64,000 bases of DNA from Bryoerythrophyllum caledonicum (taxonomy: Eukaryota > Streptophyta > Bryopsida > Pottiales > Pottiaceae), in contig OZ020517.1 in assembly GCA_963971425.1 (NCBI GenBank), forward strand, positions 16,520,904-16,584,903. Reading direction: 5' to 3'. The position numbers and the translations under genes were made by a program. Position 1 is the stretch's first letter. Each line of letters opens with the position of its first letter. Positions 4,265 through 44,600 of the stretch are shown here, in pieces. Under the pieces are notes generated by a model. The model made no database searches. It saw nothing but the letters and a program-made list of their open reading frames with translations, and was not told where the DNA came from.

Positions 4265-4279
4265 ATCCTCATTCAATCT

Positions 4280-22900: not shown

Positions 22901-25900
22901 TTTGGTAATGTAATTTGTTTTAAGTTGGTAATATTAACTCAAATGAGTTGTGAAAAAGTTTTTGGGAAAGGTGTTGGTTAATTCTTGTGTCAATTTGGAT
23001 TTTGTGTAGCCACGATGGGTCCAAAGATGAAGGCTCCATGAAGAAATCGGTGAGTGTGCTTTTTAGGTAAACTTTTGCTTTATTTTTTAGTAGAAAAATG
23101 TTTGGGTGGTTGGTGGCCTAATGTAATCAACTTTTGTTTATTCTAGGAATGTTTTTAGCACCACCGTATTTGGCAAGGATCGATTGAGTGAGTCCTTTGT
23201 AAATCTACCTTTGTCGTTTAGTGCATTTTGGAGTTGTTCCCCTATACATTGGAGGTAAGCATTTTTAAGGGAAAAAGCTTCTACTCCAAATAAATTGTGT
23301 GGGAGTTGGGTTATGACATTTGACATACATTTGGAGAGGCCGTAAATGGATTTTTTTATGGCTATGATTTTTTTGTATAGTTTTTATAGCAGGCATAGAG
23401 TATGGGACTGTGTAAAAATTGTATACTACTCCGGGTCTAAGTACGGTGTCTACCATGTTTATTTTTTGTTTAATAGTAGCGAGGCATGTTATTAGTTCTT
23501 TGCACTGTTTAATGAGTTTTGCGGTAGTGATGTATATTTGTAACTTCGATTTTAGTAAAGGGACAAGGTTTGTGCCTAGATACACGAATGTTTTATTTTA
23601 ATGTAGTATAGAGATGGGTTGGTTACAATATTTGATGTTGGTGGCTTGCATAAAAGCTTTAAATGTGGTGGGGTTCATTTTGGATTTGTTTGGACATCCC
23701 ATGGCGTCACATTTTTGGGTGCCAACATCCATTCCAAACCAATCGCAAAATTTGTCAATTTTATTGAGTTGGGTTTGTAGTGATTTAAGTCTACCGCCTA
23801 TAGCGGCATGGTCGTCGGCATGAACAACCGAGTTTATGGTGACTTCTGATGTTCCAAAGGTAGAGCCGTTATTTCCTCTTTGCATCCATCTTAGTAGTCG
23901 TTCTAAGTAAATAATAAATAGATATGGGCTTAAAATATTGCCTTGTATTGTTCCGCTTCGTATGATGATGGGACGGGTTGTTCCAAAATATTCTCCAACA
24001 TACAAATCAGGTGGATGAGTGAGAGTAGATGTTTCCAACTAGTGCAACTGCGACCGTGGGATATCTGATGTTAGACATTATTGTTGATAATTGTGACATG
24101 GTCAATAGAGCTGAATGCATTTTTGAAATCAATATACAAAATATAAATGTCTTGGTTTGTAAACCGTGTGTCTTCAAGGGCGGCTATTATGGTTTGGAGT
24201 TGTCTAGCGGTACTTCTTTCTGCACAAAAGCCTTCTTGGCTGTCGTGTAGGATTTGGTGTTTTTCTTTATATGATGATAATATAGATGTGAATGTGCTTG
24301 TGAAGAATTTATGGTAGTGTTGGCTAGGGCAATTGGTCTATGGTTGGGAAGCAATGCGGAGTCATCATTACATAGTAATATTGTAGAACTAGTTTTCTAT
24401 GAGGCAGGGATTTGTTTTTGTTTATAGCAGTGAGAGAAGAATAGGGAGAGAAGTTCATGGAATCTTAGGGGCATTAGTTTTAATATGGAGTTTGGGATGC
24501 GGTCTAATTACGGGGCTCTGTTGTTTACAAGATTTTTGAGGCATGTATCGTAAGTGGCCCGATTATAGTATGTGTGTAGCGGGATTTGTGGTTCACCACA
24601 TATGTCTACAATGAATCCGTCAAGGTCATGCCATGGATATTGTCTTACCGCACATGTACATGTAGACGGATGATTAGGTAAGTAGTTGCATGTAAGTACG
24701 ATAGGTCTATTATTTTTTGTTTGTTGGTTATATATCTCATTGGCGATGTCTTTTGGGCTAATTAAGATAGTGTTATGTTGGTTGATTATACAATCTAGCA
24801 TTTGGGGTTCATTGTTTTTGAAGACTCTTCTCTTTATTTTCTTAGGACTATTTTCATATTGATGTCTATAATTTGGAGACGGGTTTTTTGATGTTTTCTT
24901 TGGTATATTTGGTAGTTATTTTTCTAGCTTGTTTATTGGCCTTTTTTGCAATTGATACAACATCATGTAACCATTCATATTGTGATGTGTGGAGAGGTGG
25001 TGGAGGCGGGATTTGGGTATGTTGGGGGGTTTTTAATTTCTTGGCAGCGGGGTGGATGACCCATTGTAGGTTATTTTTAATAATTCGAATTGTTTTTTGG
25101 ATGGTATGGTAGGTGGTTAAGTGTTGTTTCCACTTTTTTGAAAACTTCCATGGTAGATAGCCTCCTTGTTTGGATGTTCTAGTTGTTAAAAGAAGTATGG
25201 CAGGGCCTTTACAAGTTTTCTCTAGAGTGTTGGAGATGTTATTTACTAGTGTATCTAGGATGGTGCAAACTTCAGTCCATTTTGTTTGGAAGAGGTGGTC
25301 ATTATGTTTTAGGCAATTAATAAGGGAGTCAATTTGTATAGAGATTTCTTCAAAAACGTTGTCTTTAAATTTTGTGCATTTTTTTTTGGTATGGAATTGA
25401 GTATTCAAATGTTTTCATTGTTTGGTGTTGTAGGTGATCTACTAATAAGTGTGTTGTGTGGGATATTTAATTGGATTGGTGAGTGATTTGAGTTTAGAAT
25501 AATTCTTGTTTTTGTGGTATAGGTGTATTGTGTGTGATTAATGTTTAGTATATAAAAGCCATCTATTAAACTTAGGTCTTTATAGTCGTAACTCCCTTGT
25601 CTAGAGTAGCGTGTGTCTATTGGGATATATTTTAAATTTAGGTTATTGGTGAAGTTTTGCCTTTGGTGGTCAACAAGTTGTGGTGGAGAAAATTGGTTGT
25701 TGTGTTGTCTGTCGATTAGTGCCACATCTCTATTGAAATTGTCACATAGTAAATATGTGTGGTTTGGATGGTTGTTAATTTGGGTGGTGATGGTATTTTT
25801 GATGTTTGTGATGAATCTAATTTCTTCTGGGTGAGATGGCATGTAAATGTGAAGTTATATCCATGGTTTAAGTGGTTGTTTATTAAATTTTAATATTTGT

Positions 25901-27270
25901 AAGTAGGGAGATATGTGCATTGGTGTGGGGATTTTCACAATGTTATTAGGAAATGCATAGTTTTTGTGTATTTGTGTGAGAATGCTACCCCAATTCGGTG
26001 TATATGGATAACGTTGTTGGATACAATTTGTGAATGCATGGATATTCTTAATGATAAATTTGTAGTTAGGAAAGATTCATTGTATGTATTTAATATAATT
26101 TGTGGTGTGAGTTTGGTTTCCTAGATGGCAATTAAGGTTGGGGGGCTATTTTTGTATGTAACTAGGTTTTGAATACATGGGAGGGCAGTGTTGAGGGATA
26201 GGGCATTCCATGTAAGAATACATGCATCGTTGTTAAGAGTGTTTGTGTTTGAATTTAGAGGAGGGATGTGTGGGGGGTGGAGGCGGGTGAGTGTATTCTG
26301 GTTCAAAACATCTTAGTTTTTAATTCTTTTATTAGATGTATATTTCGTATTGTGGGTCGATTTTGATTATGGATGAAGTCGTATAGTTTTTTATGTATTG
26401 AATCTCTATGATGCATAATGTCTTGGTTTTCTTTAATGAATTTTGTGTATGGGTGTTTTGTGGTAATGTGCCATTCAAGTGGGTTATGTAGGGCAGCTCG
26501 TTGTTTAGGAGAATGTTAGTCCATTGTGTTTTATGAAAGTGTTGTGATGATAGAAGGCGGTTACATTCTTCTAAGGTAGGGTGAGTGGTGATTATTAAAG
26601 CATATAGTATGTGTGAGGGTGGGTGTGTATCATTTTGTTGAATAAAATGGGCGATGTGCGGGAATGTGGTATTGTAGGTGTTGTATAATGTGTGAGTGTT
26701 TTTAGAAAGGGTGTTATTGAGTTAGAGATGTGTTGATATTTGGAGTGGATTTTTATGGTACCTGGCATAAAGTATGTTTTTGCTCTTTTCTAATCTGACG
26801 CAGGGTGTGTTTTTACTATATTTGGCATGGGTCCAGGGTTTGTTTGAATATCTCCACTAAGTAGTAGTGAAAGTGTGCAATGGAATTTTTTGGTAGCGGT
26901 TGATATGTTTTTAAGTTTGTCTTTGAAGTGTTTCTTGTCTCTATTTTGGTGTTTTTGTGTTTTGGTTATTAATATGAATTTAAAGGATGTGTACTTTATA
27001 TCTTGGGTTGGTTTAGACTTTGCGGATTCGTAGTGCGGAGATATTTTTTGTATAGATGTTGATGGTGCGCTTAAATTTGTGGTTTTTATGTAATTGGGTG
27101 GTTGGATGATGTAATCCAGGTGTGTTTGTGAATTGTATGTGTGGATTACGAGAAGTAAGTGTAAATAATAGTGTCGAGGGATATTTTGGAGTGTTTGTGC
27201 ATTGAGGTGTACAAGGTTCTCTTGTTGTATATGTGTGAAATTTTGTGACGGTCAGGTGTGGCATGTATTT
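19961..27270 (-). mobile_element. Decayed Dualen-like non-LTR retrotransposon (APE, RT, RNase H, zinc finger, RLE)
   Basis: Read on the minus strand, domains appear in order. An APE-type endonuclease runs from about 26235 (ILTWNALSLN, then IAI-stop-ETK) to 25480 (ILNSNHSPI). A linker follows. RT has an LDRIPNSIL block near 24500, YIDFKNAFSSIDH near 24110-24150, GTIQGNILSPYLF, and ADD near 23820. RNase H spans 21690-21190 (TDGSF, LRAEMMALH, HIFIDS, NKQADKLAKEG). A CPIC...H...C finger lies at 20826-20885. A PD-(D/E)XK-like domain follows at 20660-20370. The 3' UTR ends with the GTGGAACGAACAAACACTTT block, a hairpin and a TTC-rich tail at about 19961-19978. Stops and frameshifts interrupt the frame repeatedly, so the copy is inactive. 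The 5' boundary is uncertain: coding-like sequence without an assigned domain continues to about 27264. Confidence 0.75.
21924..21967 (+). mobile_element. 44-bp nested retroposon tail with 13-bp TSD
   Basis: Inserted in the LINE in opposite orientation. The direct repeat CTTGATGGTGTAT flanks it at 21911-21923 and 21968-21980. The insert is a CGCCCG...CCGGCG hairpin followed by (TTC)n, resembling the 3' end of the same family. It is an extreme 5' truncation. Confidence 0.7.
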
Positions 27271-28094
27271 GTATTTGAAGGGGGAATTTGTGGAAGATGG
27301 GCTTGTGTTGAGGATGAGTGTGTATTGTGTATGTATCTAATAGATGTATGTAGTGTGTGTATAGGTATGAAGTATGTATTGTTCATGTATGTATTTCCAA
27401 GGTATATTTGTATTCAAGTGGTACTTGTATGTAGAAGGTATGTATGTAATAAGAGTGAGATACCAAGTACAATGCCAATGCACATTACATATTCTAGTAC
27501 ATGTGGGATATAGTACCCTAACCTTGTATCTATCATAATGTATATAGCAAGTGCAATCAATAGAGAGGCTTGGAGAACAAACATCCAGTGGAGATAATAC
27601 AAAAATTGTTGCGTTATAGAGATAGCCTATTGAGAGAAAATTGGGTTAGCAAACCTCTAGTGGGGGAGAGTGTTTTCAAGAGAGTATCTAGAGAAGTAAA
27701 CAACTAGTGGGAAAATTGCGGGTGATACTACATTGTGAAGATAATCTAAGGAGTAGTCACTGTAGTGGCAAATCACTTGTGAAGGAGACATGGGTCATTA
27801 TGATGCAAGGGCAAGCGATAGGAGGATATCTATATGGGTTAGATGTCAATATAGAGGTTCTAGTTACAACCACAATGAAAATCAAGGCTAGGGAGACATA
27901 AACATGATGGCAAGCTTCAAAATGGGGGATCACAGTACTAGAGTGCAAGATAGAGTAATTACAATATGAGATGAAGTGACTGAGTATGGCATAGGCGTTA
28001 CTCACCCATGGGGTGTAAAATTCTTGAAAATTTTGACCGTGATCATTAGTCAATTGATGTTTGACTGGTCTTCAATGGTCAAATGCGATGGTTT

Positions 28095-28316
28095 AGTGAG
28101 TGTTTGCATTTCAAGCAATGTGGTGAGCATTTGCATTTCAAGCAATGTGGTGAGCATTTGCATTTCAAGCAATGTGGTGAGCATTTGCATTTCAAGCAAT
28201 GTGGTGAGCATTTGCATTTCAAGCAATGTGGTGAGCATTTGCATTTCAAGCAATGTGGTGAGCATTTGCATTTCAAGCAATGTGGTGAGCATTTGCATTT
28301 CAAGCAATACGGTTGC
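28095..28316. repeat. 27-bp tandem array, about eight units
   Basis: The unit contains GAGCATTTGCATTTCAAGCA and is repeated with almost no variation; the first and last units are slightly diverged. As 27 is a multiple of three and no unit contains a stop, long ORFs open in several frames on both strands. These ORFs are a consequence of the repeat and are not treated as genes. Confidence 0.85.
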
Positions 28317-28499
28317 AATCATGCTTTGGACTGAGCTCTTGGTAAGCCTCTTGGTAACCAACCAAATTCATAACCGACTCCTAAAAAATTGGGGTATATC
28401 CAACTCATTTCTATACCATTACCTTCTATTTAGCTCCAAATGGAAGTTTGCTAATAGTCAAGGTAATTATATGGGGTACATCAGGCAAATTTCTGGCCA

Positions 28500-30689
28500 A
28501 TAGCTCAATCAAAAAATGGAATGGAATCAATATGAAGTATATACTCGCATCAATTCTATATGGATGTTGTATACTTCCATTATAAAGTAGATCATATCAT
28601 TAACATGAAAAAATATAGACTCAATCCCTCTCTAGCTCGTATATTTTTGGAATCGCTACTTTTGTTTCATGTTCATGTGTTACTTGGTGATGTTTGGACT
28701 ATGTGCTATATTTATTATGTAACAGGAGTTGCTTATCAATGTAGCTAACTGATGTGCATGACTGATCAATGTCTTCACGCTTTCTTATGATGCTTTGTGC
28801 ATGTAATCGTAAAAACGCATTTTATGTTTAACCTTTACAAGTCAATCGGAGACCATATATACAGGTGCATATTTTATTTTGTAGGATACCAAAAAAGAAC
28901 TAAAGTCTAGCAAGCCTTATACCTTCTGATTGAAAATTCTTCAACTAACATCTTTCATTTGGGGGTCATTTCAATATTTCAACCTTATCATGTTCAAATA
29001 CGACATTATATGTGTAGAATACTTTTGGCCACCTTGTGACGTTGAAGAGTTAATGCAAGATATTGTACTTGATGAACTACGTAAAGTTGATTCAACACCT
29101 CAAGTTACAAATAATTCCCCTCGAGATAAATTTGGAAGTGGATGAAATTACAACATTGTTGACATATGTCGTGCGGAATCTAGACTTGTTTCAAATACTC
29201 CGTGCAAACCTATAGCTACCACTGTAAATTACAACGGATAATCTTCAAGGTTTCAACTTATACCTCCTAGCATGATTTCATAATTTGGAGCCTTGAAGTT
29301 AAGCCCTAGTGACTTGAGCATTGTATCCTTAAGTTTTTAAAACTACACAAGTCCTTTACTCATATCATCACTTGATGAAATATTTGTGTGTAAGGATGTT
29401 TATTGCTTATTTTGTGTGTAAGGATGTTTATTGCTTATATTGGCAAGGATGGCTTATTGGTGCCTACATTTGGTGTTCACTAACTCAAAGCAACTACAAT
29501 AACTGACCCATAGATGATCGAGTGGTATTTCTTTTTGTATTGTCTTTCACTGTTTTAATATGTGGAGCAATATGGTGATTTAGATTTTGGATTAAATTTA
29601 GTTTTGTCAATCCTTACATACTTGCAAATATTCATTTGGCACAAGCCAATTCAAAACAACACATAAAGGCATAATGTTTAATTACAATATTCAAATAAGT
29701 TGACAGTTGAAGTGTAGAAAATGGCACTAATTTCAAAACTATAGTAATGGATGCAAAAAAAAATTGATAAGTAGAGGATATTGTAAGAATTTTTTTTTTT
29801 TGCAATTGAATTCAAGCATATTTTAAAATTGTGTTTGCCTTGGCACCACAAGTGCCGTTAAACTATGGTGAGAAAAAGACCACTCTATAACACAATAAAT
29901 ATGTAACGTTTATTCACACAAATTTATAATATTTAAATCTAATTAGATATTAATATCTTAGTTTAAATCATAGAGTTTTGAAGAACATCCTTGAAACCTT
30001 GGCAAATGAACAATATTGTTTGCATATAGAAATAAGGCAAGTACTTTGAAGATGGAATATATCCAATCGATTTAAATGAACGTTTTACTTTAATATATCA
30101 TAATTACAATAAGTTTTTTAAAAATCATTATAATGAGATTTTAGTTTATGTTCCATTACATTTATATATAAGGAGATGAAAAAAGTTAACTAAACCATAT
30201 GGGGAGATGGAGAAAAAAAAATAGAGGGGTTGAAATAATGGTGTAGGTTTAAAACAACAATGTGACATAATTTGGAGTATAAGATATGAATATTTTATTT
30301 TCATACAAATATTACATTGTTTTATATGATTTTTGATTCACAAAATAAAATATATACATATTATATGAGATTACACTTATTTAAAAAATATAAAACTTGG
30401 ATGAGTACCATATCGTTTTTGTAATCCATATGATTACATTATTTTATTATCACCATAAAAAACTTATACAATTTTTCCCCATATTGTATATATATATATA
30501 TATAATTTTATTAAAAAATATTGCATACATTTTCATTTAATAGTGTTTTTAGGAGCTTGAGAGGGATTTAGTCAATATTTATAAAAAGAAATGATATGGT
30601 CTACTTTGTAATGGAAGTATACAACATCCGTATAGAATCTATAAGAGTATATACTTCATATTCATTTCATTTTGTTTTCATACAGAGCC
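28500..30689. mobile_element. 2.2-kb DNA element with ~95-bp terminal inverted repeats
   Basis: The left end at about 28501-28602 and the reverse complement of 30590-30688 match across roughly 95 bp. In the inner 73 bp I count about seven mismatches (shared words ATATGAAGTATATACTC, GGATGTTGTATACTTCCATT). The interior holds a copy of the dispersed repeat (28945-29060) and AT-rich sequence but no recognisable transposase, so it appears non-autonomous. It separates two blocks that are adjacent at 6850-7180, so it probably inserted into an older repeat. Target-site duplication not certain. Confidence 0.65.
28945..29060 (+). repeat. Dispersed ~110-bp repeat, copy 2
   Basis: Same core as the copies at 2703-2810 (inverted), 31795 and 32025: ACATCTTTCATTTGG, GTCATTTCAATATTTC, then CAAATACGACATTATA. 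It lies inside the 2.2-kb TIR element. Confidence 0.6.
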
Positions 30690-30729
30690 AATGGTCGGAG
30701 GTTTTTGTGACATTGTACCAATTGGCGGC

Positions 30730-30890
30730 ACTCGCTAAACATGGCAGCACGTTTTGTAAATTCATAACTAATTCACATCTCATTGGAAACATATGAAATC
30801 ACTTGGATTAAAATGGTAAATCTATTGGCTATGAGGAAAAATAAATGTATTATTATTTGTACTCTCCATATATGCACATTCTTTAACTTC
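30730..30890 (+). repeat. Second copy of the 7020-7180 dispersed repeat
   Basis: Matches 7020-7180 in order (CTAAACATGG, TTTGTAAATTCATAACTAATTC, ATATGAAATCACTTGG and CTCCATATATGCACATTC words). It begins just right of the 2.2-kb TIR element. Confidence 0.55.
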
Positions 30891-31127
30891 TCGATTGTCA
30901 GCTTTTGGCTAAAATCTTAAAATTTCCCAGTTTCTTGGGCATATTCTATTTTTGGAAATAAGATTTCGCTACTTGGCCTCAGGTCGCCAAAAACAAAAGG
31001 CCTGGAGAGAACCATGGGTAGCAAGCACAAATGAAACAGAGTAGAACCAACATCAAGTGAACAGTACCACGACATTCCATAACCATGGTCTATCATTGGA
31101 CAACAAGCTCACAATGGACTGGCTCTT

Positions 31128-31623
31128 AGGGCCGCTTCACACTAGGCCGAGTTGAGAGTTCGTCTGTCAAAATTGAAATATACATATTGAAGCCTTTGGG
31201 CGGCTGTGGTGTGAAGCCCCAAAGCCCAAGTCCAAAGTCCAAACCCCATATCATTATGCCAAAAAAAATAGCCTATTAGAATCAGCCAAAAAATCAGCAA
31301 AAAAAGATCAGCCAACAAATTCGGCCTCTTTCATCTAATGGTCCAGATCTTGTCAGATTTTGATTATTTTGTTGAATAAATCGACAGATTCTCAAAGGAA
31401 GTTTGGGTCGACTAAAAATGGCGACCCAAGTTTTGCTCAAGAGTCCGTCGCCTTGGCGCCAAAACTTTCCAAAAATACTGCCATGCAGCCACATTGGAAG
31501 ACGATGGCCTTTGGACTTTGGCCTTTGGTGTGAAAGCCGAGAGGCTTGACTTTGGCAATTCAAGCAATCTCATTGGTGGAGATCGACGGACTCTCTACCT
31601 TGGATTTGGTGTGAAGTTGCCCT
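31128..31623. mobile_element. ~0.5-kb MITE with AGGGC...CTTCACAC termini
   Basis: The left end is AGGGCCGCTTCACAC; the right end is GTGTGAAGTTGCCCT. Inner matches (GAGAG, CGTC) extend the inverted repeat to about 40 bp with mismatches. No coding domain is present; the 89-codon minus ORF inside shows no family features. No target-site duplication is evident. Confidence 0.5.
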
Positions 31624-31689
31624 CACCATACCAACACATTCACAAAGAAGAATTCAAAAACTAAGATAATCATGGAAAGCAAGTATAGA

Positions 31690-32155
31690 CAACTTAACCC
31701 TTAAACGTCAGTCAAGAACCGTATTTACGGGCGTGTATTTTACTCTGAAGAAAACATAAAATGTATTGAAATTTAATAAGAATTACACCTTTGGATTGGA
31801 GATTCTTCAACCAACATCTTTCATTTGGAGGTCATTTCAATATCTTAATCTTATCATTTCAAATACAACATTATACACATAGAATATTGTGGCCACGAGT
31901 GGCACCTTTTGACGTTAAGGGTTATACGTCAGTTGGGAACTGCATATCCAGGCATATATATCACTATGTAGTTTAAAAAAAAATGTATTCCAATTTAGCA
32001 AGACTTTACACCTTTGTTTAAAGTTCTTTGACTAACATCTTTCATTTGGAGGTCATTTCAATCAATCTCAACCTTATCATGTTCAAGTACAACACCATAC
32101 TATGTATGTAGAATATTGTGTCCTCTAGTGGCAGCTTTTGATGTTGAAGGGTCAA
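31690..32155 (+). repeat. Two tandem ~230-bp units of the dispersed repeat
   Basis: Units at about 31690-31918 and 31919-32155 share ACGTCAGT, an AATGTATT block, ACACCTTTG, ACATCTTTCATTTGGAGGTC and a TAGAATATTGTG block. They are non-coding. Confidence 0.6.
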
Positions 32156-32945
32156 AGCACAAATCACATCAAGAGAACATAATCACAACATCCAAAACTC
32201 ATAGGTTACTCTTGCACACCAAAGCTCACACAAATATGACATATTAGTTTCCAACGTATAAACAAAGAAAAATTTGAAAACTGAGAGAATCATGGCAATT
32301 AAATTTTCCTCATCCAATGTTGCAGCATATGATGTTTTATTACTTAATCAGGCTAGGATCTACCAAAGTTTTCTCATTCAATATTTGTGATTTAATAAGT
32401 AATGACAGTAGAAATTTTATTCTTGAAGGCTCTAAGGACTTAAAAGTCTCGAGGCATCCATTTTTTGGGATTTGGACTTCGAGCCACAACGGTTACATAT
32501 CGTCTATTGCATAATTTAACTTTGGAAAAAAAATGAAACAAAAATTATTTCATTTTATCAACATCCATTTAGACCTTTCTTTTAAGACATTATTCTCATC
32601 TAATAAAATATGGTGATAATGATTCCAAAGCACCAAGAATTTTACAAAGGCTACAACATAGAAGTGTAAAATCTTGTAGCCTTTTTATGACAAGGAGTAA
32701 AAATGAATGAATATCAAACTTGAACCAAACCAACCAAAGATTGTCATTATTCGATGGTCATATAGCACCCTAGTGAATTTGTCAAAAAAACAATTCTCAT
32801 TCAACTTTTCTAACAAATCATATTATCTAATCATTAATTTTGTCAATTTTTTAATTTTTTAGTTTAACTATGACGGACATAATAAATTTGTGATGTGGAA
32901 AATGTTAAAGACTAATAGTATTATAGATTGTACAAATGTCTAGTG

Positions 32946-33029
32946 GACATTGATTTAGTGGTGGAACAAACAAGCACCTTATTCACTCCGGCCCCCTTCT
33001 TCTGATGGGACAAGAGTTCTTCTTCTTAC
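32946..33029 (+). mobile_element. 5'-truncated LINE tail copy upstream of the symplekin-TAG gene
   Basis: An 84-bp insertion containing TCTAGTGGAC, GTGGTGGAACAAACAAGCAC, ATTCACTCCGGCC and a (TTC)n end. It is flanked by the 9-bp direct repeat ATTGTACAA at 32937-32945 and 33030-33038. Confidence 0.7.
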
Positions 33030-33730
33030 ATTGTACAATTATACTCAAAAATAAAAATTAATAACTGCAAAACACAACCTGTCATCAACTCATGGACACA
33101 TATTTCAAGAACAAATGAAAACAAGAACCAAATAGAAATACTTCAACAAATTCTCTCAACCACGAAGTCTTGCTACAGGTAGGCTTCAAGGAGGAGTCTT
33201 CGAGAGACTTCAAAAGAACCCGTCCCATCCCCATACTCGATGTATTTATACCCTCCACATACCCTGCGGTCTTGTGATACCTATACAGGCCTTTGGACGA
33301 AACCGGACATACGGGGACTAGGTGAAGGTATACCCACGTGATACCCATACGATACCACCACGATACTGACGTGATACCGTGTCAGGGGCAGCGTAGGTTG
33401 GAGTCCATGTCAGAAGCACAGGCAGAGTAACAGGAGGGGAACAGTGAGTGAGTGAGAGGGAGAGTGCCTCTGAGTGCATAGTTTTGCTTCCCTTTTACAC
33501 TTGGGCGGGAGAATGATCACACACTCGCACAGCTTCTTCTTGGCCCTAATGCGCTTGTCTCGCTTCGATCGCAAGCTCACGGTCGCCGATCTCAAGGTGT
33601 TTAGCAGCTCGCAGAGATTTTGAGGCATATCTGGCGCTACTGGGGAGGTGATCTGGAGGATTTAGATGGACGTGGCGTAGAGCGACGAGAGAGGGAGAGA
33701 GCGCGGGAGGGAGCTAGGGAGGGGAGGAAC

Positions 33731-33752
33731 GGAGGGAGGGAGGGAGGGAGGG
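33731..33752 (+). promoter_or_regulatory. G-tract run in 5' leader (possible G-quadruplex)
   Basis: Five GGGA-type tracts in a row (GGAGGGAGGGAGGGAGGGAG) end a few bases before the ATG at 33757 on the coding strand. Such a run can fold as a four-layer-capable G-quadruplex in mRNA and reduce initiation. Folding is inferred, not shown. Confidence 0.45.
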
Positions 33753-33756
33753 CGCG

Positions 33757-36700
33757 ATGGCTGAGATCCGGGCGCAGGCGTTGGCGCTGTTGAATGAGGT
33801 GAAAATGCAGGACGACGTTGGCGCCAAGGCGGATTGCTTGAAGCGGATGATGGAGCTCGTACTCATGGAGCAAGATCCGTCGTTGCTGCTGCCGGAGTTC
33901 GTGCCTTGCTTGCTGGAGTTTCAGACGGACAGTGCGGGTCCGGTTCGGGAAAATGTAGCGGAGTGAGTGTTCGTAACTTTGTTTCTTGGCGATAGTGCTT
34001 GTTTTCTAGTTTAGGTGTCGTTTTTATCCTCTCTACGTTGTGCTCTCCATCGGTTCTCATACTAGGCACATTGATACAATGAGATCTAGTCTTGTTGTGC
34101 TGCTGGAATGGCGAAAGTATAGTGCACAGTCGTATAGAGATTACTGTGGACGCGAATGTTGTAGTTTGTGGATAGGATCCTGTGTTTCAATTGTCACTCC
34201 GAATCTACAGGAGTTCTGGCTCCGATAAACCCTAGATTATCCCATCTATAAGAATCTAACCGACGTGCCGAGCTCATTTATTATTTTCCGAAAAGGTAGA
34301 TCTCTTCTCCTCTTAGCTCCTAACGGCATTAGTAAGCCTCACTCTAGGCATGATACTCAATCACACCATCTGATCCGCCAATCTGAGATTTATCACATCC
34401 CTATTCATCTCTGCACTTGCTCATGCTCTTACAGCGGTGGAGGTCTTCGTGATGTGCACATTGCCTTCTAGTTGGACGCGATTCTTTTTATTAAACTCAG
34501 TGAGACCTGTCAATGTAGACAGGTTTGATGTGTCATTCTAGAGGATCTGTGCCAGTGATAGGTTTAGTATTCCTTTCAACGAGTTTCTTAATATTTAGAT
34601 GATCATATATGTGCAATTTGTGAAGCATCAAATTCCGAGCTCTTGCTCTCTGTCTTAAAAGGGACGTGTTGATATTTGTTAGTGAATGAAGTTGGACTAG
34701 TCATCATGTGAAATTAGAAGATTCAGTGGCGGAGTACTTTAGGATTGTAAGGCTTTTTAGAGTCGCTCTCGCCAACTTTGAGTTTCCAAAGATTTTACAG
34801 TTGCCTTGTCAAAGTATCTAATAATTCAAAGTCACTCTGTTGGTTTCTATGCAGGATGATAGGGAGTATATGTCTGCAACACATTGACTATGTGCAAGTC
34901 ATGGCTCCGGCTATGCTCGCTCTGTTGCAAGATTCTGCATCAGAAGTCGTTCAACGAGCTATTACCAGTGGTAGTAATATTTTTCAAACTGTATTCGAAC
35001 AAGTTGCTCTGCAGGTATGATTACGTCCATCTCTAAATCAATGTAGCATTTTTTTCAAGGTGTAATGACAATGACACCTTCATGTCATAGACTGAATGAA
35101 TCATTTAAGAATGAGCCTAACAATGTGCTGAGATGTCGATACTTTTGGTTTTTCAGGGCATCGATAATGGACGTGTTGAAGAAGATTTATTAGAATGCTG
35201 GAAATGGATGATACGTTTCAAGGAGGCTGTTTATTCCCTTGCTTTTCAGGTAACCACCTACTCCAGTGTAATCACTAGGTTCTTCCTATTCTTTGGCATT
35301 TTGTTATGAGAGTGAAGCTTGTTGTGGTCTAGTACTCACTCAGGTATGATTCATGAATTTGTTAAATGATCTGTTGGAATGAAATTAATTCTGCAACCCG
35401 CTGTTTGGTGAGTTGCAGCCTGGAGATGACGATGTGCAACTGTCAGCTCTGAAGTTTCTGGAGACTACGCTTCTGCTCTTCACGCCTAATTCTAAGAGTC
35501 CTTTACCAGACCAGCAGACATCTGACGGTCAGCTACACTTTCATTTCTGCTCATTACTGCCTCAGGTAATGCTTGATTAGTTCCTGTCAAGATGAGCTTG
35601 AGTCTTGACTGGAATGGTTGGGCTGGTGGGCCAGGTGCATCTGAAGGATTTCAACATTTGATGACACGGATATCTGGAGGACATCCAGTCTTAGATGCTA
35701 GCACGTTGGAGCAGGAGGCATATAAAAATCTTGGACTTCTATTGGATCAATTACAATCTCCAAAAACTTCATCCTTGTCTGGCTTGGTTGCATTTGCAAT
35801 TATTGACAGGTGATTTCCCTACCCACGCGGTCGTTCAGTAATTCCCAGTTTCCTAGGAACTGTTGCGTATAATACTCCTGAAAGAATCCTAAGCTGAGTC
35901 TCCACATTTTACAAGTATTTCGGTAGATGATATCTATTCATCTTTGTTAAGAGGAATTGTACATCAAAATCATTGGAATCATTGGAATGTTGGAAATTGA
36001 GTTCTTCTACAACTACTTCCTGCAGGTTGATAGAGAACTTTCACTACTTATATTGTTCTTGATACATTTTATTCTTTGAAAGCTTTCTGCTGAAGGATTC
36101 CATTGCTGTGTACTCAATATGTCGTGGCGATCACTTTCAAACTTGGCGCACCTACTCTGCACGTTCTAGTTTTATTCATATTGATATCGAATATATGAAA
36201 TTGCAGTTTACCTCTTCTGTGAATCTCCAGCATCATACGAATTGGTCTAGAGATTGTTGGCGGTGGACTAGAGAGAACAGCCTTGTTGGCAGTAGATTGC
36301 CATTGCTCTCAACTGTGGGTTTGATGCAGTTTGACAGGTATAACAGAAAGAAGACCATACATGTCGGAGACTATACTCCCAGTTTTGTCTAGTCTAGTAC
36401 CAGATTCTGAGCATGTTCTTGGAAGCCGAGCTGACAATATTGTTCACGAACTGAAAGGTTTATCTATGAGTATTCTGACATCAAAACAGCCTGGCGATTT
36501 GCCGGTTCGTATTCTATCCATTTTCTCGTCTTGTTTTGAATATATGTTCTCATCGATTTTGTACATCACATTTTATTCGTTATCTCTTAGTCTTGTGCGG
36601 TATATATTAGAAATGGGAAGGTGACAGTCCTTCAATCATTCAGCTGATCTGCATAAGCAAATTGAAGGGATGGGAATTGACTTATTTCAGTTGGTTGCAT

Positions 36701-39700
36701 TTTATAGTGGCGAGAGCAGTTGGTTGCATCATTGAGGTCCACAAATGCGGTGGAAACGATTGATCAAGTCATCAAAGAACCTGAAACTCCTATCTCAGTA
36801 TCCAGCGTGTCAGAGATCAAAGAGCCTGGAACACCTACTTCTATATCGAGTGTGTCGGAGACCAAAATTACTCGTCCTTCTATTACCCCAAGAACTGGAC
36901 TTAAGCCTCGAAACTCCTCGGCTGTTTCTTCTACTGCGACCGCTCCTCCACGAACTGCATCCCCTTTGAGACAGATAAGGACCTCGTCTGCGGCTACGTC
37001 TGCGACTGCCCCACCACGAACTGCATCTCCTGCGAGACAAGCAAGAACTTCATCTGCTGCTACCAGCGGCAGTGCCCCTCGAGCTGCACCTCCTTCTACA
37101 AGTGGGACTGGTCCTCCAAGAACTGCATCTCCTGCGAAACGGACAAGGACCTTGACTGCTGCTACAAGTGCGACTGCTCCTCCACGAACTGCCTCTCCTG
37201 CGCGCCAGGCAAGGACTTCATCCGCTGCCGGTCCTGGGACCGCTCCACCACGAACTGCATCTCCTGTGAGACAGACTAAATCCTCCTCTTCTTCCGCCAG
37301 TGAGAGTGCTCCTCCACGAACTGCATCTCCCGCAAGGCAAATCAGGACTTTTGTCTCTACCACCGTAACCGCTCCACCTAGAACCGCATCTCCGGCGAGG
37401 CAATCAAGGACTGCCACCACTACCACTGCAACTCGACCAGCATCGCCATTAGTCAAGCTGCCGGCGAAGACCATCGGCTCTGTATCTCAGAATGGACCTG
37501 CCAGTGGGAAGGTAGTTCGTGGTCCATCCCCAGCAAGACCCAGGTCTGGTCCTGTTGATAACGCCGTTAGTAAGGTCTCTTCTTCTCCTCGTGCTGGATC
37601 AAGTGTTGAGAATCCCAAGACTTCAAGTGTCATTGTGCCGTTTCCTCCAACGACTGTAAAATCTTCAGTCAAGCCTGCCCTTACTTCCTTGAAAGTATCA
37701 CCCCGGCCGTCCCCCTCTTCTTCTCCTCGTGCTGCCCCGAGTTTGGAGAACCCTAGGGCATCTGGTGTGATTGTGCCTTTCCCCCTGACGACGACTGTGA
37801 AGCCTTTGCCCAAGCCCTCTGTCACTTCTGCCAAAGTGTCTCCCCGCCCAGCGTCCCCTTCAGTGAAGACAGCACCACGTTCAGCGTCTCCGTCATTGAA
37901 GCCATCAGCTCGATCAGCATCGCCAACCGTGAAAACAGCAGCTCGAGCAGCATCACCCTCAGCTCGTGCGACGGTTGGGAGTTCCCATCGAACGGCTTCA
38001 GGAAATGTAGCAAGCCGTCCTGCATCGCCATCTCCAGCCGCACGGAAATCCTCGGCAGCGTCTCCAAATCAGCTCCCATCTCCGTCTTCACGTGCTTCTG
38101 AAAACAAGTCAGCCCACCGACCTACTCCTAACGGGTCATCTACGACTTCATCAAGACCTGGTGCAAATAATAGTAAGCCTTCCGCTTCCACGAATACAAC
38201 AGTTTCATCTGCTAGCCCAGCTACTTCTGCACGGAGCAAGGTCTCGTCTAGTGCATCCTCTCAAAGCTTACTGAAGTCAAAGATAGGGACTCTGATCCCT
38301 TCGGCACGGAAGGCGCCCCAATTGCCAGCTTGTGAGAGTCCATCTGGCAGGGGTGAACCTAGCTTGGATGTGCCTTCCGACTCTGTGGATGTTACCGCAG
38401 CGAAGAGTGTAGCACAGGAGCCTCCGCCGCAGAGGTTAAGGATTGCAAGCTTCAAACGTAACAGTTCGGGGCTGTCGAAGGTCACAGAGATCATTTCGCC
38501 TGAAGTTGTCCCTGCTCAGCCAATGACGTTGAATTCGAAGAAACGTTGTGGGTGGATTACATCTCAAAGTGGTATGTCCTCGATAGTACCCACTAAACTG
38601 TCTCCCAAGGGTCTGCAATCTTAACATCATCGTCTTGCTTTAGGCGATGATATTTAGCTAGGACACGACTGGATGCAGGAGGCAACTTTGATTGGAATTA
38701 CGGATATTTCTCTTTTAATGATCATGTTAACACAGGCCTCTTTGCTGTTCACGTAACTTAGTAATCACGATTTGTGTTGACATGGTCTGCAGATGAGGCT
38801 CATATCGCTTACCATGACAATGAGTGGGGCATTCCAGTATATGACGACAAGTAAGCTCCATTCCTTCTGTGTCAACTTCTTTCTGACTCTGCTTTTGAAT
38901 TACTATTCCTCTTTTTGTGTGTAGGAAGAACCAGTTCACTCTTCTTTCTCTTGTATGAACTTCATCTACTGTATTTGTCATGATCTTTACATGTGATGTC
39001 TTAGCAAGATTGCGATTTATCTGATGACCTGCAATCCTATGATCAGGATAAAGTAAATCCGAAAATTGTCGAACAATCACGCTGATTTCTAATTAAGCAA
39101 GTAGTACGTATAACTCGAGCCTTATGCTTATGGTTTTACTGTGTCTTCAGACTTCTATTTGAGTTGATTGTACTACAAGGGGCACAGGCGGAATTGAGCT
39201 GGCCCACCATTCTCGCTAGGCGCAATAATTTCAGGTGCACAACGGTTTCTCGACCTAGACGTTGCAGTTATCAATTATCGAAGTTTCAAGTTTTTGTAAG
39301 TCATAATTTATGATTCGTGTCTAACTTAGAGCCTCTGGCATGTGAACAGGGCTGCTTTTGCATCTTTTGATCCAGCTGTTGTCGCCAGGTTCGATGAAAA
39401 GAAGAAATTATCACTGATAGCAGATTCATCCATCTGCTTCCCAGAAGCAAAAGTGAGAGGAGCCGTTGATAATGCTGCACTTGTACTAAAGGTCGGCTAT
39501 GATTTCCTTTCTTTTGAGTGTTTATCCTAGTTTCATGTCGGATTTCTTCTGTTCGGGCCTGCTTATGACTTACACTGCGGGTGTTCTGTCTAATTCTTAT
39601 GTTCCTGACAGACGTAGAATTCTTGTATTCTTGTCAGATTATCGAAGAGTATGGCTCATTGAGCAGGTTCTTATGGAGTTATGTGAATCACAAGCCTGTA

Positions 39701-40177
39701 GTAAGTCAATACAAATTGGCCAAACAAGTGCCGGTCAAGACACCGAAGTCCGAGGCCTTGAGTAAGGAATTGATTCGTAGAGGCTTCAGGTTCGTGGGTC
39801 CTACGACGATGTATTCTGTGATGCAAGCGGCAGGTCTGGTGTGTGATCATTTGGTGACCTGCTACAAGTTTCAGGAAACCTCTGCCGAAAGTTCGCCAAG
39901 GACTGATTCCTCCCTTGAAGGAGAAAAATCTACAGACTCGTGGCAGGGAATCTCTGTGCAGGTCTCTAATAATATTGAGCCTCGAGTGGGAGGAGTGGAT
40001 GTATATCCTCATGAATTCAGGAGAGCTTCAGCCAATGCTTCTGATCCTGTCTGGGCAGACCTCCCCAAAATCGAGGAAGCAAAAGAAGAGGATTTGGAGA
40101 ATAAAGAAGGCGAAGAAGACCAAGAGGCATACGATGCTATTTCGTCGTCATCCAAGTGTGAGATACCAGCTTGCTGA
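33757..40177 (+). CDS. Symplekin N-terminal domain fused to TAG-type 3-methyladenine DNA glycosylase, 1201 aa
   Basis: Exons: 33757-33962, 34855-35014, 35157-35249, 35419-35527, 35635-35809, 36330-36504, 36708-38571, 38793-38850, 39151-39234, 39350-39491, 39638-40177; 3606 nt, all phases agree. Residues 1-306 match the symplekin/Pta1 N-terminal HEAT region (VRENVAEMIGSICLQHIDYV, SGSNIFQTVFEQVALQG, WMIRFKEAVYSLAFQPG, GGHPVLD, LGLLLDQLQSP, WREQLV at 307). Symplekin scaffolds mRNA 3'-end processing. Residues ~330-917 are a Ser/Pro/Ala/Thr-rich linker with seven PPRTASP units. Residues 918-1102 are a plant-type TAG domain: KRCGW, AYHDNEWG, GAQAELSWPTIL, VNHKP, GFRFVGPTTMYSVMQAAG, CDHLVTC. The Cys/His ligands of the TAG zinc site are present. 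An acidic tail follows. The symplekin C-terminal domain is missing. The only in-frame ATG in exon 7 is Met913, five codons before KRCGW, so a separate glycosylase start there is possible but would lack the long open linker. Confidence 0.75.
36700..38520 (+). repeat. In-frame ~66-bp minisatellite encoding PPRTASP(A)RQ units
   Basis: The densest part, about 36940-37420, encodes seven units of about 22 residues of the form PPRTASPxRQxRTSSAAT. It is followed by looser SPSVK, SPSLK, SPTVK and SPSAR motifs to about 37960. Reading frame is kept through the whole array, which indicates selection on a translated product. Confidence 0.75.
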
Positions 40178-41635: not shown

Positions 41636-44600
41636 ATGGCGCTTGTGGTGCGGAGGCTCCTGTGCCACCACTTTTTTGCGTCGTCGGCGTTCTCGCGGCA
41701 TCTGGCGCACTCTTTGGCTGAGTCGCAATCGTCGCCAGGTTCGTGCATTGTCTGAAATTGCCCGAGTTCTTGTTTCAATGCCATCTGTAACAACAAGTCT
41801 TTCATTTTGGAAGTATTTACTTGTGGCCTTTTCGGAAGGAGCTCAAGTCCACTCAGTTATCTCTTCAGGCAAGAAATTACATAAATGCTGTTACAGCACG
41901 GCTGATTGTGATTATAATTGTAATCTTCGTGAATGCTCGAATTCGAGAACAGCTATAGAATTCATGCCGAATTTAGCGAGTAGTTTTGTGCTCTGCATTT
42001 AATGTCCTAATTCACTGCGAGGAAGTATTATTAGAAGCTCTCAATCATCTCAATGGTTTGAAACTTAAAAAGAAAAGATATTTCTTCTCGGAATCTGTTA
42101 GAGTAGTCATTACTGTTGAATTGCAAAGTATGTAAAATGTCTCCTTGTGTTTTTTTCTCTTAAACCCCCCACCTGGTCTTATTTGCGTCCTTTTATATTC
42201 ATACGTTGCATGGAATCTTGTTACGCTATAAATTGGTCAATTATATAGGTTCAAAATAAGTTATTTCAGCTCGTTGCATCCAAATTGTGCAGAACCAGAC
42301 TTCTTCAACAAGCGAAGTTGCTTCCACACCTAGTTTTTGATGAAATACTGTCCTCACTCTGTCTTTTGTTCAAAATTGTGATAAAATACTCGTCAATACT
42401 ATCCTTTCCTTGTAGTTATCATTCAAAATGGCAATGAAGCACTTGTCAAAAAATCTGTCCTCACTCTGAGTCAGACTCTTCAAGTGATTGTGTGTCCTTG
42501 ACACTGATACTGTGTTTCAAATTGTGCAGATCCAGACTCTTCAACAAGCGACGTTGCTTCTACACCATCTCCAGAGTCAGATGACACAGCCATCCCTGCC
42601 ACAACATCCTCCAAGGAATGGTACCATCTGGACAAAGTCATGTCCAACGACCGGCAGCAGCTGGACAAGGTGATGTCGCGGCACCTGGACAACGCAGTCC
42701 TGGGCGTGCGGCGCCTCTTCAACCTGGTGAAGCAGGAGAAGTTCGAGGAGATGCTTGAGGTGCACGACGAGCTGGCGGAGAAGGAGAAGGAGGCGCTGCA
42801 CAAGTGCATGGACGTGGTGATGTACTCTCGGTTGATGACGAGGGTGCGCGAGCTCGGACCTCAGTACGTGCTGCCCGTGTTCCAGAGGATGCTGGCTGTG
42901 GGAGTGGTGCCCAATGTGGTGCCCTATACCATTCTGGTGCAGGCGTACATGAATACCGTCGCCAGAGTAAGCTACTCTTTGTCGTCTCTTTTCTTCTCTT
43001 GAAAATTCCTATTAATAAGCCTGATATACAGTATAAACTGTCAGTTATGTCGGTTTTGATATGAGGATATCGTATGATCTCATTATGACAATTCTATGCA
43101 GGCTGTTTGGATTTGTGTAAAGCTTACATAAATATTAGTTCAATTTTGTACCGTTCTGGTGAGGCATCAGGAAAATTCTTGGTCGATAAGGGATAGATAA
43201 GGTCATGCTATTTCCTATGAAATCAGGAACTTAACTATTTGTTTGTATGCTAATTTGACAGGAGGATGGGAAAGGCTCTAAATTTGTGACTCCTTCTCAG
43301 GAGCTATATGTTTTCAGAGCCTTTGAGCTTCTGAAAGAGATGCGGGGCAAGAGTATACTCCCAAACAAGCTAACTTACAAGCCCATCATGTCATGGCTCT
43401 CTGAGAATGGTAGAGTGGCCCAGTTTCAAGAGCTTGCCAAGTGGATGGAAGAGGATGGAGTGTTCTTTGATGGCGTCTTTAAGTTCTACGAAATCCAGCT
43501 TTTTCTACAGTCGCGTGACTTCAAAAAAGCCAAGTCGATTTACCTCACTACCAAGAGCTTGGATCAGAAGCTACCTTGGTCTATGGATGGTGAGTACCTT
43601 TGATGCAGAGTGTGTTGAGTTATATGGTAATGCAAGATATGGAGGGTTGGATAACTTCATATAGCATCTCTAATTTTACCTGTGAGGTCATGAATGGTAT
43701 GCTTCTTTTTGGCAATTAAATGTAGTCTGGTTTGGTTTACATGAGTAGGATGGTTGCTAGAGAAACTGGTGGTTTTTGGTAGTGTTGTTCTTGATTCTCC
43801 TTTGAGAGAGAGGGAAACTGATTGAGCAGGCATGATTCAATGGCATGGGGGAACATGGTAGCTCGGTTCTTGACGGCGTTGGCAAAGGATGATGAAGTCT
43901 CTGTTGTCATGGACTTGCTTCCTAAAGTGCTGCCCACCATCAAGTCCAGCGCTAGTGTAGTGGCCGCCTTTCAGTGTCTTGGCAGGCATTACCAGCATGA
44001 GGCCGCCCTACTAGCGTTTTCTCTATTGAAAACCAAAGGTACCTACTCTGATTCATTTGATTGCGTTTTAACAAGATGAATGTCAGTTATTGTAAAGTCA
44101 CTCAAAGTTTTAGTAAGATACCCCTCTTTATACTACTCTTTCCTCACTCTAGATAGTTATTGGATCAATAGAAGAGCTTAGTGGTCTCACCCTTCAATTC
44201 AGTCAATGAAAGAGCCTGGCGGTCTCTAAACTTAAGTCAAAGTAGTTCTAGTTGTCCTTGAGAGTGAAGAAAGGGTTTGCATGGGATCAACCCTGATGAA
44301 TACAAATCGCCCTTCTCTCCCTTGAGCTGATTTTAGATTGATTGAGAGCTATTAAGAGATGCTTTCAGAGGGTATTTTGTTCAAAGTTTGCGTGACTTTA
44401 CAGATTTCTCTAATATTACTGCAATATCTAATTGTGATAGGCACGAATGAGCAGCAGTTGTGTTTCTACTTGAACGCCTACATTCATGGATTCAGTCAAG
44501 CCGGCAAGGTATTCAACTTCTTGTGAAGTTAGATATAGAGATGTTGTCTTCAGGTCCTTTCCTATATGAGGATAGTCTTTGCTCTAGTTGTTGATTTGGA

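What the first reader, a model, noticed from the sequence alone, without database searches (positions are those of the whole stretch)
33757..40177. Symplekin N-terminal region and TAG DNA glycosylase in one open reading frame
Seen: exons 1-6 encode the symplekin/Pta1 N-terminal region. Exon 7 starts with the conserved WREQLV continuation and stays open for 1864 nt through a Ser/Pro-rich linker into KRCGW, the start of the TAG domain. Four further exons complete TAG. All eleven exons keep frame and sum to 3606 nt. Known: symplekin is a ~1300-residue scaffold of mRNA 3'-end processing, and plant TAG is a stand-alone glycosylase with a Ser-rich N-terminal extension. Inference: either the locus makes a protein tying 3'-end processing to alkylation repair, or a partial symplekin duplicate drives a TAG gene. 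I know of no described fusion of these two families.
Basis: partly seen in the sequence, partly recalled or inferred. Interest (0 to 1): 0.88.

Follow-up and report, generated by a model that had tools for sequence, protein, structure and literature searches.

The report
Moss symplekin–TAG DNA glycosylase fusion gene
In this moss and at least two others, the front part of an RNA-processing scaffold protein is joined in one gene to a DNA-repair enzyme domain; the join looks old and single in origin, but what the combined protein does is untested.

Summary
Eleven exons with GT-AG introns join in frame (3606 nt, 1201 aa). They encode a symplekin N-terminal domain (PF11935, 97.8 bits), a ~556-residue Ser/Pro-rich linker and a near-complete TAG domain (PF03352, 224.3 bits). 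The same architecture is annotated in Ceratodon purpureus and in two Physcomitrium patens proteins, with the linker alignable in frame. A separate symplekin gene on C6 shares its first six intron positions and phases with the fusion gene, so the 5' half is a DNA-level partial duplicate. Four fusions form one clade next to Bryopsida symplekins; an origin before the Sphagnum split is rejected (AU p 0.0008), and the Sphagnum TAGs seen are unfused. All four zinc-site residues are kept, but the bacterial Glu38 position is Gln in all four fusions. Most likely this is one protein that tethers a TAG-type glycosylase to Ssu72/Pol II through the symplekin domain. The fusion gene is near certain; one-protein expression, tether and activity are inference. 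The proteins are in databases; ten paper searches found no description of the fusion.

The parts
33757..33962 (+). exon 1, start codon and symplekin N-terminal HEAT region (aa 1-68)
   Evidence: same-strand DNA similarity to the C6 symplekin begins one base before the start codon
34855..35014 (+). exon 2, symplekin N domain
   Evidence: same length and phase as in the C6 symplekin
35157..35249 (+). exon 3, symplekin N domain
   Evidence: same length and phase as in the C6 symplekin
35419..35527 (+). exon 4, symplekin N domain; Lys165 (35452-35454) aligns with the residue changed to Ala in the human K185A structure 3ods
35635..35809 (+). exon 5, symplekin N domain
36330..36504 (+). exon 6, symplekin N domain
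   Evidence: same length and phase as in the C6 symplekin
36708..38571 (+). exon 7: last symplekin-derived residues (WREQLV...; DNA similarity to C6 symplekin exon 7 ends near 36754), Ser/Pro-rich linker, start of TAG domain
36771..37962 (+). repeat-bearing part of the linker (tandem arrays of 45, 66 and 33 nt, all multiples of three; APPRTASPARQ-like units)
38430..38462 (+). pre-TAG segment QRLRIASFKRN, identical in all four fusions and in the moss fragment P0029
38523..38525 (+). Met912, the only Met of exon 7; possible internal start of a TAG-only isoform
38538..39868 (+). TAG (Adenine_glyco) domain, spread over exons 7-11; zinc-site residues C920, H935, H1093, C1097; Gln956 (39176-39178) at the Glu38 position
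38793..38850 (+). exon 8, TAG
39151..39234 (+). exon 9, TAG
39350..39491 (+). exon 10, TAG
39638..40177 (+). exon 11, end of TAG and C-terminal tail, stop codon

Best explanation
SHOWN by sequence: the first six exons and the start of exon 7 of a symplekin gene were duplicated at DNA level and came to lie upstream of a TAG-type glycosylase gene, joined in frame. The tree dates this after the split from Sphagnum and before the split of Ceratodon from Physcomitrium. The result is one gene for a protein of about 1,100-1,230 aa, seen in all three Bryopsida for which I saw proteins, beside a separate symplekin in each. INFERRED: the linker is the old Ser/Pro-rich N-terminal extension of the TAG protein; the gene is read as one mRNA and one protein; the symplekin HEAT domain binds Ssu72 (and so the Pol II CTD) or another partner of this domain, and thereby places the glycosylase at transcribed or terminating chromatin. 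Because the fusion lacks the C-terminal part of symplekin that contacts CPSF73-CPSF100, it should not act as a cleavage-complex scaffold. My sub-estimates are 0.92 for a single conserved fusion gene, 0.8 for a full-length protein made, and 0.35-0.4 for the tether.
For: Exon model and domains. Same architecture in Ceratodon and two P. patens proteins. Pairwise identity across the four fusions: linker segments 44-86% with many length differences, TAG 92-95%, N domain 58-90%. Six of six introns compared lie at the same place and phase as in the C6 symplekin; paralogue dN/dS about 0.30 (dN 0.28, dS 0.92). Fusion clade 100/100; fusions plus three Bryopsida symplekins 100/100; origin older than the Sphagnum split rejected, AU p 0.0008. 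Unfused TAGs with long Ser/Pro-rich extensions in Sphagnum and Marchantia. Structure models: the N domain of P. patens P0002 matches symplekin chains in ranks 1-14; moss fragment P0029 matches solved TAGs in ranks 1-10, TM 0.86-0.93. The residue changed in human symplekin K185A (3ods) is Lys in 3 of 4 fusions.
Against: No transcript or protein data for this genome. Gene models in the other species could share an annotation habit, although the shared exon 7 makes this weak. The fused N domain has changed fast on the window-P. patens path (0.69-0.73 against 0.19 for symplekin), though only 0.15 against 0.10 on the window-Ceratodon path. P. patens P0003 has Ala at the Lys185 position, the very change of mutant 3ods. 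Two TAG-only predictions that cross exon junctions exist (P0030, 315 aa, 18 contigs; P0029, 359 aa, 1 contig); they begin inside the linker and could be shorter transcripts. The Gln at the Glu38 position may alter or remove 3-methyladenine activity. The P0002 structure model is weak overall (mean pLDDT 44.8) and its symplekin matches have rmsd 5-13.5 A.
Confidence: 0.6

Rival explanations
1. Promoter and leader capture: the symplekin part mainly supplied a promoter and start to the TAG gene; the domain is a tolerated passenger, and active TAG is made partly or wholly as a short isoform from an internal start (Met912).
For: A Met lies 3 or 5 residues before KKRCGW in all four fusions; TAG is far better conserved than the symplekin part; the N domain has changed 3.6-3.8 times more than in symplekin on the window-P. 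patens path; TAG predictions P0030 and P0029 of 315 and 359 aa.
Against: PF11935 is above its cut-off in all four fusions and paralogue dN/dS is about 0.30. Window exon 7 has no Met before 912, and a start there would drop QRLRIASFKRN, identical in all four fusions. In the stretches compared (window 30001-33756 against the 928 bases before the C6 gene) the only upstream matches were four of 29-49 nt on the opposite strand, 1.6-2.1 kb before the start codon, so no captured promoter is visible; it may have decayed. P0029 and P0030 begin at different places: P0030 at a residue that is Val in P0002, P0029 at one where the aligned fusions have no Met.
Confidence: 0.2
2. The fusion acts on symplekin's partners rather than on damaged DNA: a truncated symplekin that binds or sequesters Ssu72, with the TAG domain as a DNA- or RNA-binding module of reduced or changed catalysis.
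For: Gln at the Glu38 position in all four fusions, the change of the S. aureus mutant 4ai4. The genome still has four places matching the other 3-methyladenine glycosylase family PF02245, so TAG activity may be dispensable. Partial symplekin isoforms are known in plants (passages of PMC3538716).
Against: All four zinc-site residues are conserved in the fusions and TAG is the slowest-evolving part. Many other plant TAG rows also lack Glu there, so Gln alone does not argue for loss.
Confidence: 0.2
3. Two neighbouring genes merged by wrong gene models; no fusion protein exists.
For: No cDNA was available; the evidence here is from genomic models.
Against: Exon 7 itself joins both domains in one open frame, with a stop-free linker not expected by chance, alignable in frame in Ceratodon and two P. 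patens proteins.
Confidence: 0.05

Closest known systems
Symplekin/Pta1 (PF11935 + PF12295), e.g. Ceratodon P0007, Arabidopsis ESP4
   Same: N-terminal HEAT domain; same first six introns as the C6 symplekin of this genome; fold match to human and fly symplekin N domains
   Different: middle and C-terminal (PF12295) parts absent, replaced by a Ser/Pro linker and TAG; faster evolution on the path to P. patens
Plant-type TAG (PF03352), e.g. Sphagnum P0004/P0031, Marchantia P0053
   Same: TAG domain with C, H, H, C zinc-site residues and a long Ser/Pro-rich N-terminal extension
   Different: fusion carries a symplekin domain in front and Gln at the Glu38 position
Bacterial TAG, E. coli 1lmz and S. 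aureus 2jg6/4aia/4ai4
   Same: same fold; 39-47% identity for the moss fragment P0029
   Different: solved bacterial chains are bare domains of 182-188 residues; 4ai4 is the E38Q mutant that mirrors the moss residue
Arabidopsis split symplekin (At1g27590/At1g27595 in PMC10839035; printed At5g27595/At5g27590 in PMC3538716)
   Same: a symplekin gene whose N-terminal part stands apart
   Different: split within symplekin; no glycosylase is mentioned in the passages seen
AAG-type plant MAG (PF02245)
   Same: the other plant 3-methyladenine glycosylase family
   Different: a different Pfam family (that the fold is unrelated is recalled); reported absent from P. patens (PMC5570899), but four matching places in this genome

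Membership tests
Symplekin (full-length scaffold) | N-terminal PF11935 HEAT domain | tested here: met
   97.8 bits, cut-off 25; fold match to 3o2q and 3gs3 with the model of P. patens P0002
Symplekin (full-length scaffold) | C-terminal PF12295 domain, the region contacting CPSF73-CPSF100 | tested here: not met
   absent from all four fusions; C-terminal contact from passages of PMC10688271
Symplekin (full-length scaffold) | binding of Ssu72 by the N domain | not testable with these tools
   the residue changed in 3ods (K185A) is Lys in 3 of 4 fusions and Ala in P0003; that this mutation weakens Ssu72 binding is recalled; no binding data
TAG DNA glycosylase (PF03352) | complete domain above the curated cut-off | tested here: met
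   224.3 bits, model positions 3-176 of 177
TAG DNA glycosylase (PF03352) | zinc-site Cys, His, His, Cys | tested here: met
   C920, H935, H1093, C1097, the same in all four fusions; their role as zinc ligands is recalled
TAG DNA glycosylase (PF03352) | Glu38, base-recognition residue of bacterial TAG | tested here: not met
   Gln in all four fusions; Glu in Marchantia and 4 of 6 named Sphagnum rows, Ala in the other 2; Ser, Val, Ala or Thr in other plants. The role of Glu38 is recalled; only the 4ai4 title was seen
TAG DNA glycosylase (PF03352) | excision of 3-methyladenine | not testable with these tools
   needs an enzyme assay

The most novel reading that the evidence does not exclude
Bryopsida mosses evolved a Pol II-coupled base-excision enzyme: the symplekin N domain binds Ssu72 at the polymerase CTD and carries a TAG glycosylase with a re-tuned pocket (Gln at the Glu38 position) along or to the ends of transcribed genes, a form of transcription-coupled base excision repair that I do not know from elsewhere.
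Probability: 0.3. Interest if true: 0.8.

Novelty: new variant of a known kind. Interest (0 to 1): 0.6.

Why it matters
A DNA glycosylase domain joined to the N-terminal domain of an mRNA 3'-end scaffold, kept in frame since before Ceratodon (Dicranidae) and Physcomitrium (Funariidae) parted, is a natural hint that base repair and transcription or termination may be linked in plants. It sits in P. patens, where gene targeting is routine (recalled), so the two halves can be separated and tested directly. It also adds two symplekin-derived genes to P. patens, for which a survey of polyadenylation factors counted one symplekin gene (PMC3538716).

Tried and rejected
Exon 4 ending at 35565: rejected, it breaks the frame. 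Gene-model merge: judged unlikely because exon 7 itself bridges both domains. Idea that the fused TAG is the only 3-methyladenine glycosylase, prompted by the reported absence of AAG-type MAG in P. patens (PMC5570899): rejected for this genome, where PF02245 matches four places. Origin of the fusion before the Sphagnum split: rejected by AU test (p 0.0008). Whether the fusions sit beside or within the three Bryopsida symplekins is undecided (p 0.304). TAG tree: the moss fusion TAG clade (four fusions plus P0029 and P0030) is firm (100/100) but its nearest unfused TAG is unresolved. Land-plant pre-TAG motif: a pattern written for it matched 7 of 24 rows (Sphagnum troendelagicum, two Diphasiastrum, Cryptomeria, lgn51, Aristolochia, Populus) but none of the five moss fusion rows, and 3 rows had no anchor; the likeness to QRLRIASFKRN is by eye only. 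Tests of the Ssu72 interface beyond one residue: the paper is not held.

Limits: the genome search with PF11935 listed only the C6 symplekin and not the window's own exons, so a further symplekin fragment could be missed. The PF03352 search scored 4 of 4 candidates and listed 3 matches, all at this locus. Only 120 of 2629 TAG hits were listed, for lengths of about 176-560 aa; the long-TAG search covered about 660-2100 aa, so 561-660 aa was not covered. Of the C6 symplekin only the first seven exons were stitched; tblastn pieces cover residues 1-354 and 360-1273 of the 1293 of Ceratodon P0007. Its exon 4 has tandem acceptors three bases apart; I used the one that gives 109 nt, and the phase is the same for each. 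The symplekin tree used 20 of the 25 proteins plus window and C6; P0008, P0011, P0012, P0023 and P0025 were left out as apparent close kin, not tested. In the structure job on A2 the TAG part has low confidence, I think because symplekin C-termini share those columns.

Papers: passages only of PMC3538716, PMC10839035, PMC9266487, PMC10688271 and PMC10830811; part 1 of 6 and passages of PMC5570899; all others only as search listings.
Full report
What is there. The window (one stretch of the 32-Mb contig C4 of a 437-Mb genome) holds an eleven-exon gene at 33757-40177 on the + strand. Its ten introns are all GT-AG and its coding sequence is 3606 nt. The first 317 residues are a symplekin N-terminal domain. 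Residues 318-873 are a linker rich in Ser (21%), Pro (15%), Ala (15%), Thr (12%) and Arg (8%), with 28 Ser/Thr-Pro sites and net charge +57. Residues 917-1100 are a TAG domain, followed by a tail. Pfam gives PF11935 at 97.8 bits and PF03352 at 224.3 bits.

Not chance. The stretch 36771-38520 is stop-free in its coding frame, with 21 and 23 stops in the other two forward frames. None of 20,000 first-order Markov samples of it was stop-free. The linker holds tandem arrays of 45, 66 and 33 nt.

Not peculiar to this genome. A search for TAG domains in proteins of about 660-2100 aa gave six hits. Three carry both domains: Ceratodon purpureus P0001 (1234 aa) and Physcomitrium patens P0002 (1135 aa) and P0003 (1112 aa). 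Sphagnum magellanicum P0004 (813 aa) has TAG and no symplekin domain. Ceratodon and Physcomitrium are Bryopsida of different subclasses (Dicranidae, Funariidae); Sphagnum is Sphagnopsida. Across the four fusion proteins the TAG domain is 92-95% identical pairwise, the segment just before it 72-86%, linker segments 44-86% (over aligned residues, with up to 97 gapped columns in the repeat-rich part) and the symplekin domain 58-90%. Sphagnum TAGs of 391-489 aa and one Marchantia TAG of 554 aa bear PF03352 alone. Two unnamed predictions, P0029 (359 aa) and P0030 (315 aa, identical to P0002 over the TAG tree segment), come from a source coded 'lgn', which I take to be assembled public reads. They cross exon junctions, so I take them to be from cDNA, and begin within the linker. 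They may be cut contigs or shorter transcripts.

Origin. A symplekin gene lies on C6 of the same genome: C-terminal domain match, and pieces covering residues 1-354 and 360-1273 of the 1293 of Ceratodon symplekin P0007. Stitching its first seven exons shows that the six introns between them fall at the same place and phase as in the fusion gene. Exons 2, 3 and 6 have identical lengths (160, 93, 175), and exon 4 does too (109) if one of its tandem acceptors is used. DNA similarity between the two genes begins at the start codon and fades about 47 nt into exon 7. The 5' half is therefore a genomic partial duplicate, not a retrocopy. Upstream of the start codon only four matches of 29-49 nt, on the opposite strand, were seen (best E 6e-6). 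In the tree of 22 rows the four fusions form one clade (100/100), and together with the three Bryopsida symplekins another (100/100) that excludes the four Sphagnum symplekins. Holding Sphagnum and Bryopsida symplekins together without the fusions is rejected (p-AU 0.0008); the exact place of the fusions among Bryopsida symplekins is not settled (p 0.304). So the duplication postdates the split from Sphagnum, and the fusion predates the split of Ceratodon from Physcomitrium; the two P. patens copies are sisters (96/94). I recall that split as very old, of the order of 200 million years, but did not test it.

State of the symplekin half. PF11935 is above its cut-off in all four fusions. A structure was predicted for one, P. 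patens P0002. The model is poor overall (mean pLDDT 44.8, pTM 0.37), but the first 170 residues average 73-93 in blocks of ten and later parts are lower. Foldseek ranks 1-14 are all symplekin entries, among them the symplekin-Ssu72-CTD complex 3o2q and the U7 Sm ring complex 9n96, with TM by target 0.42-0.73 and rmsd 5-13.5 A. dN/dS between the two genes of this genome is about 0.30 (dN 0.28, dS 0.92). It is below 1, although part of that constraint belongs to the symplekin lineage. The path from window to P. patens is 0.69-0.73 for fusions and 0.19 for symplekins; from window to Ceratodon it is 0.15 and 0.10. The residue that is Ala in the K185A structure 3ods and Lys in the other human chains shown is Lys in the window, Ceratodon and P0002 fusions and in all 12 symplekins of alignment A2, and Ala in P0003. 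The fusions lack the symplekin C-terminal domain, which contacts CPSF73-CPSF100 (passages of PMC10688271).

State of the TAG half. Sequence matches solved TAGs, and the fold of the moss relative P0029 matches them with TM 0.86-0.93. The four zinc-site residues are kept. At the Glu38 position all four fusions have Gln. Of the other rows examined, Marchantia and 4 of 6 named Sphagnum rows have Glu, the other 2 Sphagnum rows Ala, and other plants Ser, Val, Ala or Thr. Five of six unnamed rows that I take to be bacterial have Glu and one Asp. The E38Q mutant of S. aureus TAG is 4ai4 (title), and its Gln aligns with the moss Gln. What the change does to activity I could not read; the papers are not held.

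How it most likely works. The simplest reading is one nuclear protein in which the symplekin HEAT domain docks on Ssu72 or another partner of this domain, and the long basic linker lets the glycosylase reach nearby DNA. Nuclear location, docking, one-protein expression and catalysis are inferences. Against it stand the fast change of the docking domain on the P. patens path, the Ala in P0003 and the Gln at the Glu38 position. The main rival is that the symplekin part was a leader or promoter donor and TAG also works alone from Met912. Window exon 7 has no other Met, and a start there would remove QRLRIASFKRN, identical in all four fusions and in P0029. By eye this segment resembles the pre-TAG part of some unfused plant TAGs, but the pattern I wrote for it matched 7 of 24 rows and none of the moss fusion rows.

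What is known. A survey of plant polyadenylation factors counts a single symplekin gene in P. patens and does not mention the fusions in the passages seen (PMC3538716). A survey of AAG-type MAG genes reports none in P. patens (PMC5570899); this genome does have PF02245 matches. Ten paper searches (three of them not aimed at the fusion) gave no paper on a symplekin-glycosylase fusion. Only open-licence papers are held, and most listings were not opened. The proteins are in public databases, with names such as 'Symplekin/Pta1 N-terminal domain-containing' as far as the cut-off names show. Verdict: a real, conserved domain fusion of two known families, seen in three Bryopsida and not in the Sphagnum or liverwort proteins found, undescribed as far as I could see, function open.

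Noticed in passing
G000 C11:1835197-1835754 (L008): An AAG-type glycosylase match (PF02245, E 3.3e-55) in one 230-aa open frame without an intron; another frame of the same locus looks to my eye like a bacterial lipoprotein: horizontal transfer or assembly contamination. Other PF02245 matches lie on C10, C11 and C7.
   Followed up: partly
P0003 (Physcomitrium fusion copy b), residue 164: Ala where the other three fusions and all 12 symplekins of alignment A2 have Lys, the same change as the human K185A mutant 3ods; the two P. patens copies may differ in partner binding.
   Followed up: partly
window 26790-27251, minus strand: Open frame holding GDIQTNPGP near its end, a 2A-like motif as recalled from non-LTR retrotransposons; other frames nearby (24866-25414, minus) may belong to the same element.
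   Followed up: no
window 3056-4291, minus strand: 411-aa frame with no Pfam match at E 0.01.
   Followed up: partly
window 27970-28503, plus strand: Frame with many near-perfect copies of the unit VSICISSN, implying a 24-nt tandem array.
   Followed up: no
window 58481-59173 (+), 17206-17679 (-), 42508-43002 (+): Pieces of ordinary neighbours: nucleotide-diphospho-sugar transferase (PF03407), FAD-dependent oxidoreductase (PF01266), weak PPR repeats below the Pfam cut-off.
   Followed up: partly
plant TAG alignment: The Glu38 position of bacterial TAG is replaced in many land-plant TAG rows (Ser, Ala, Val, Thr, Gln), while the position five residues on (Gly in the rows taken to be bacterial) is mostly Glu or Asp, suggesting a re-wired base pocket in plants.
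   Followed up: partly
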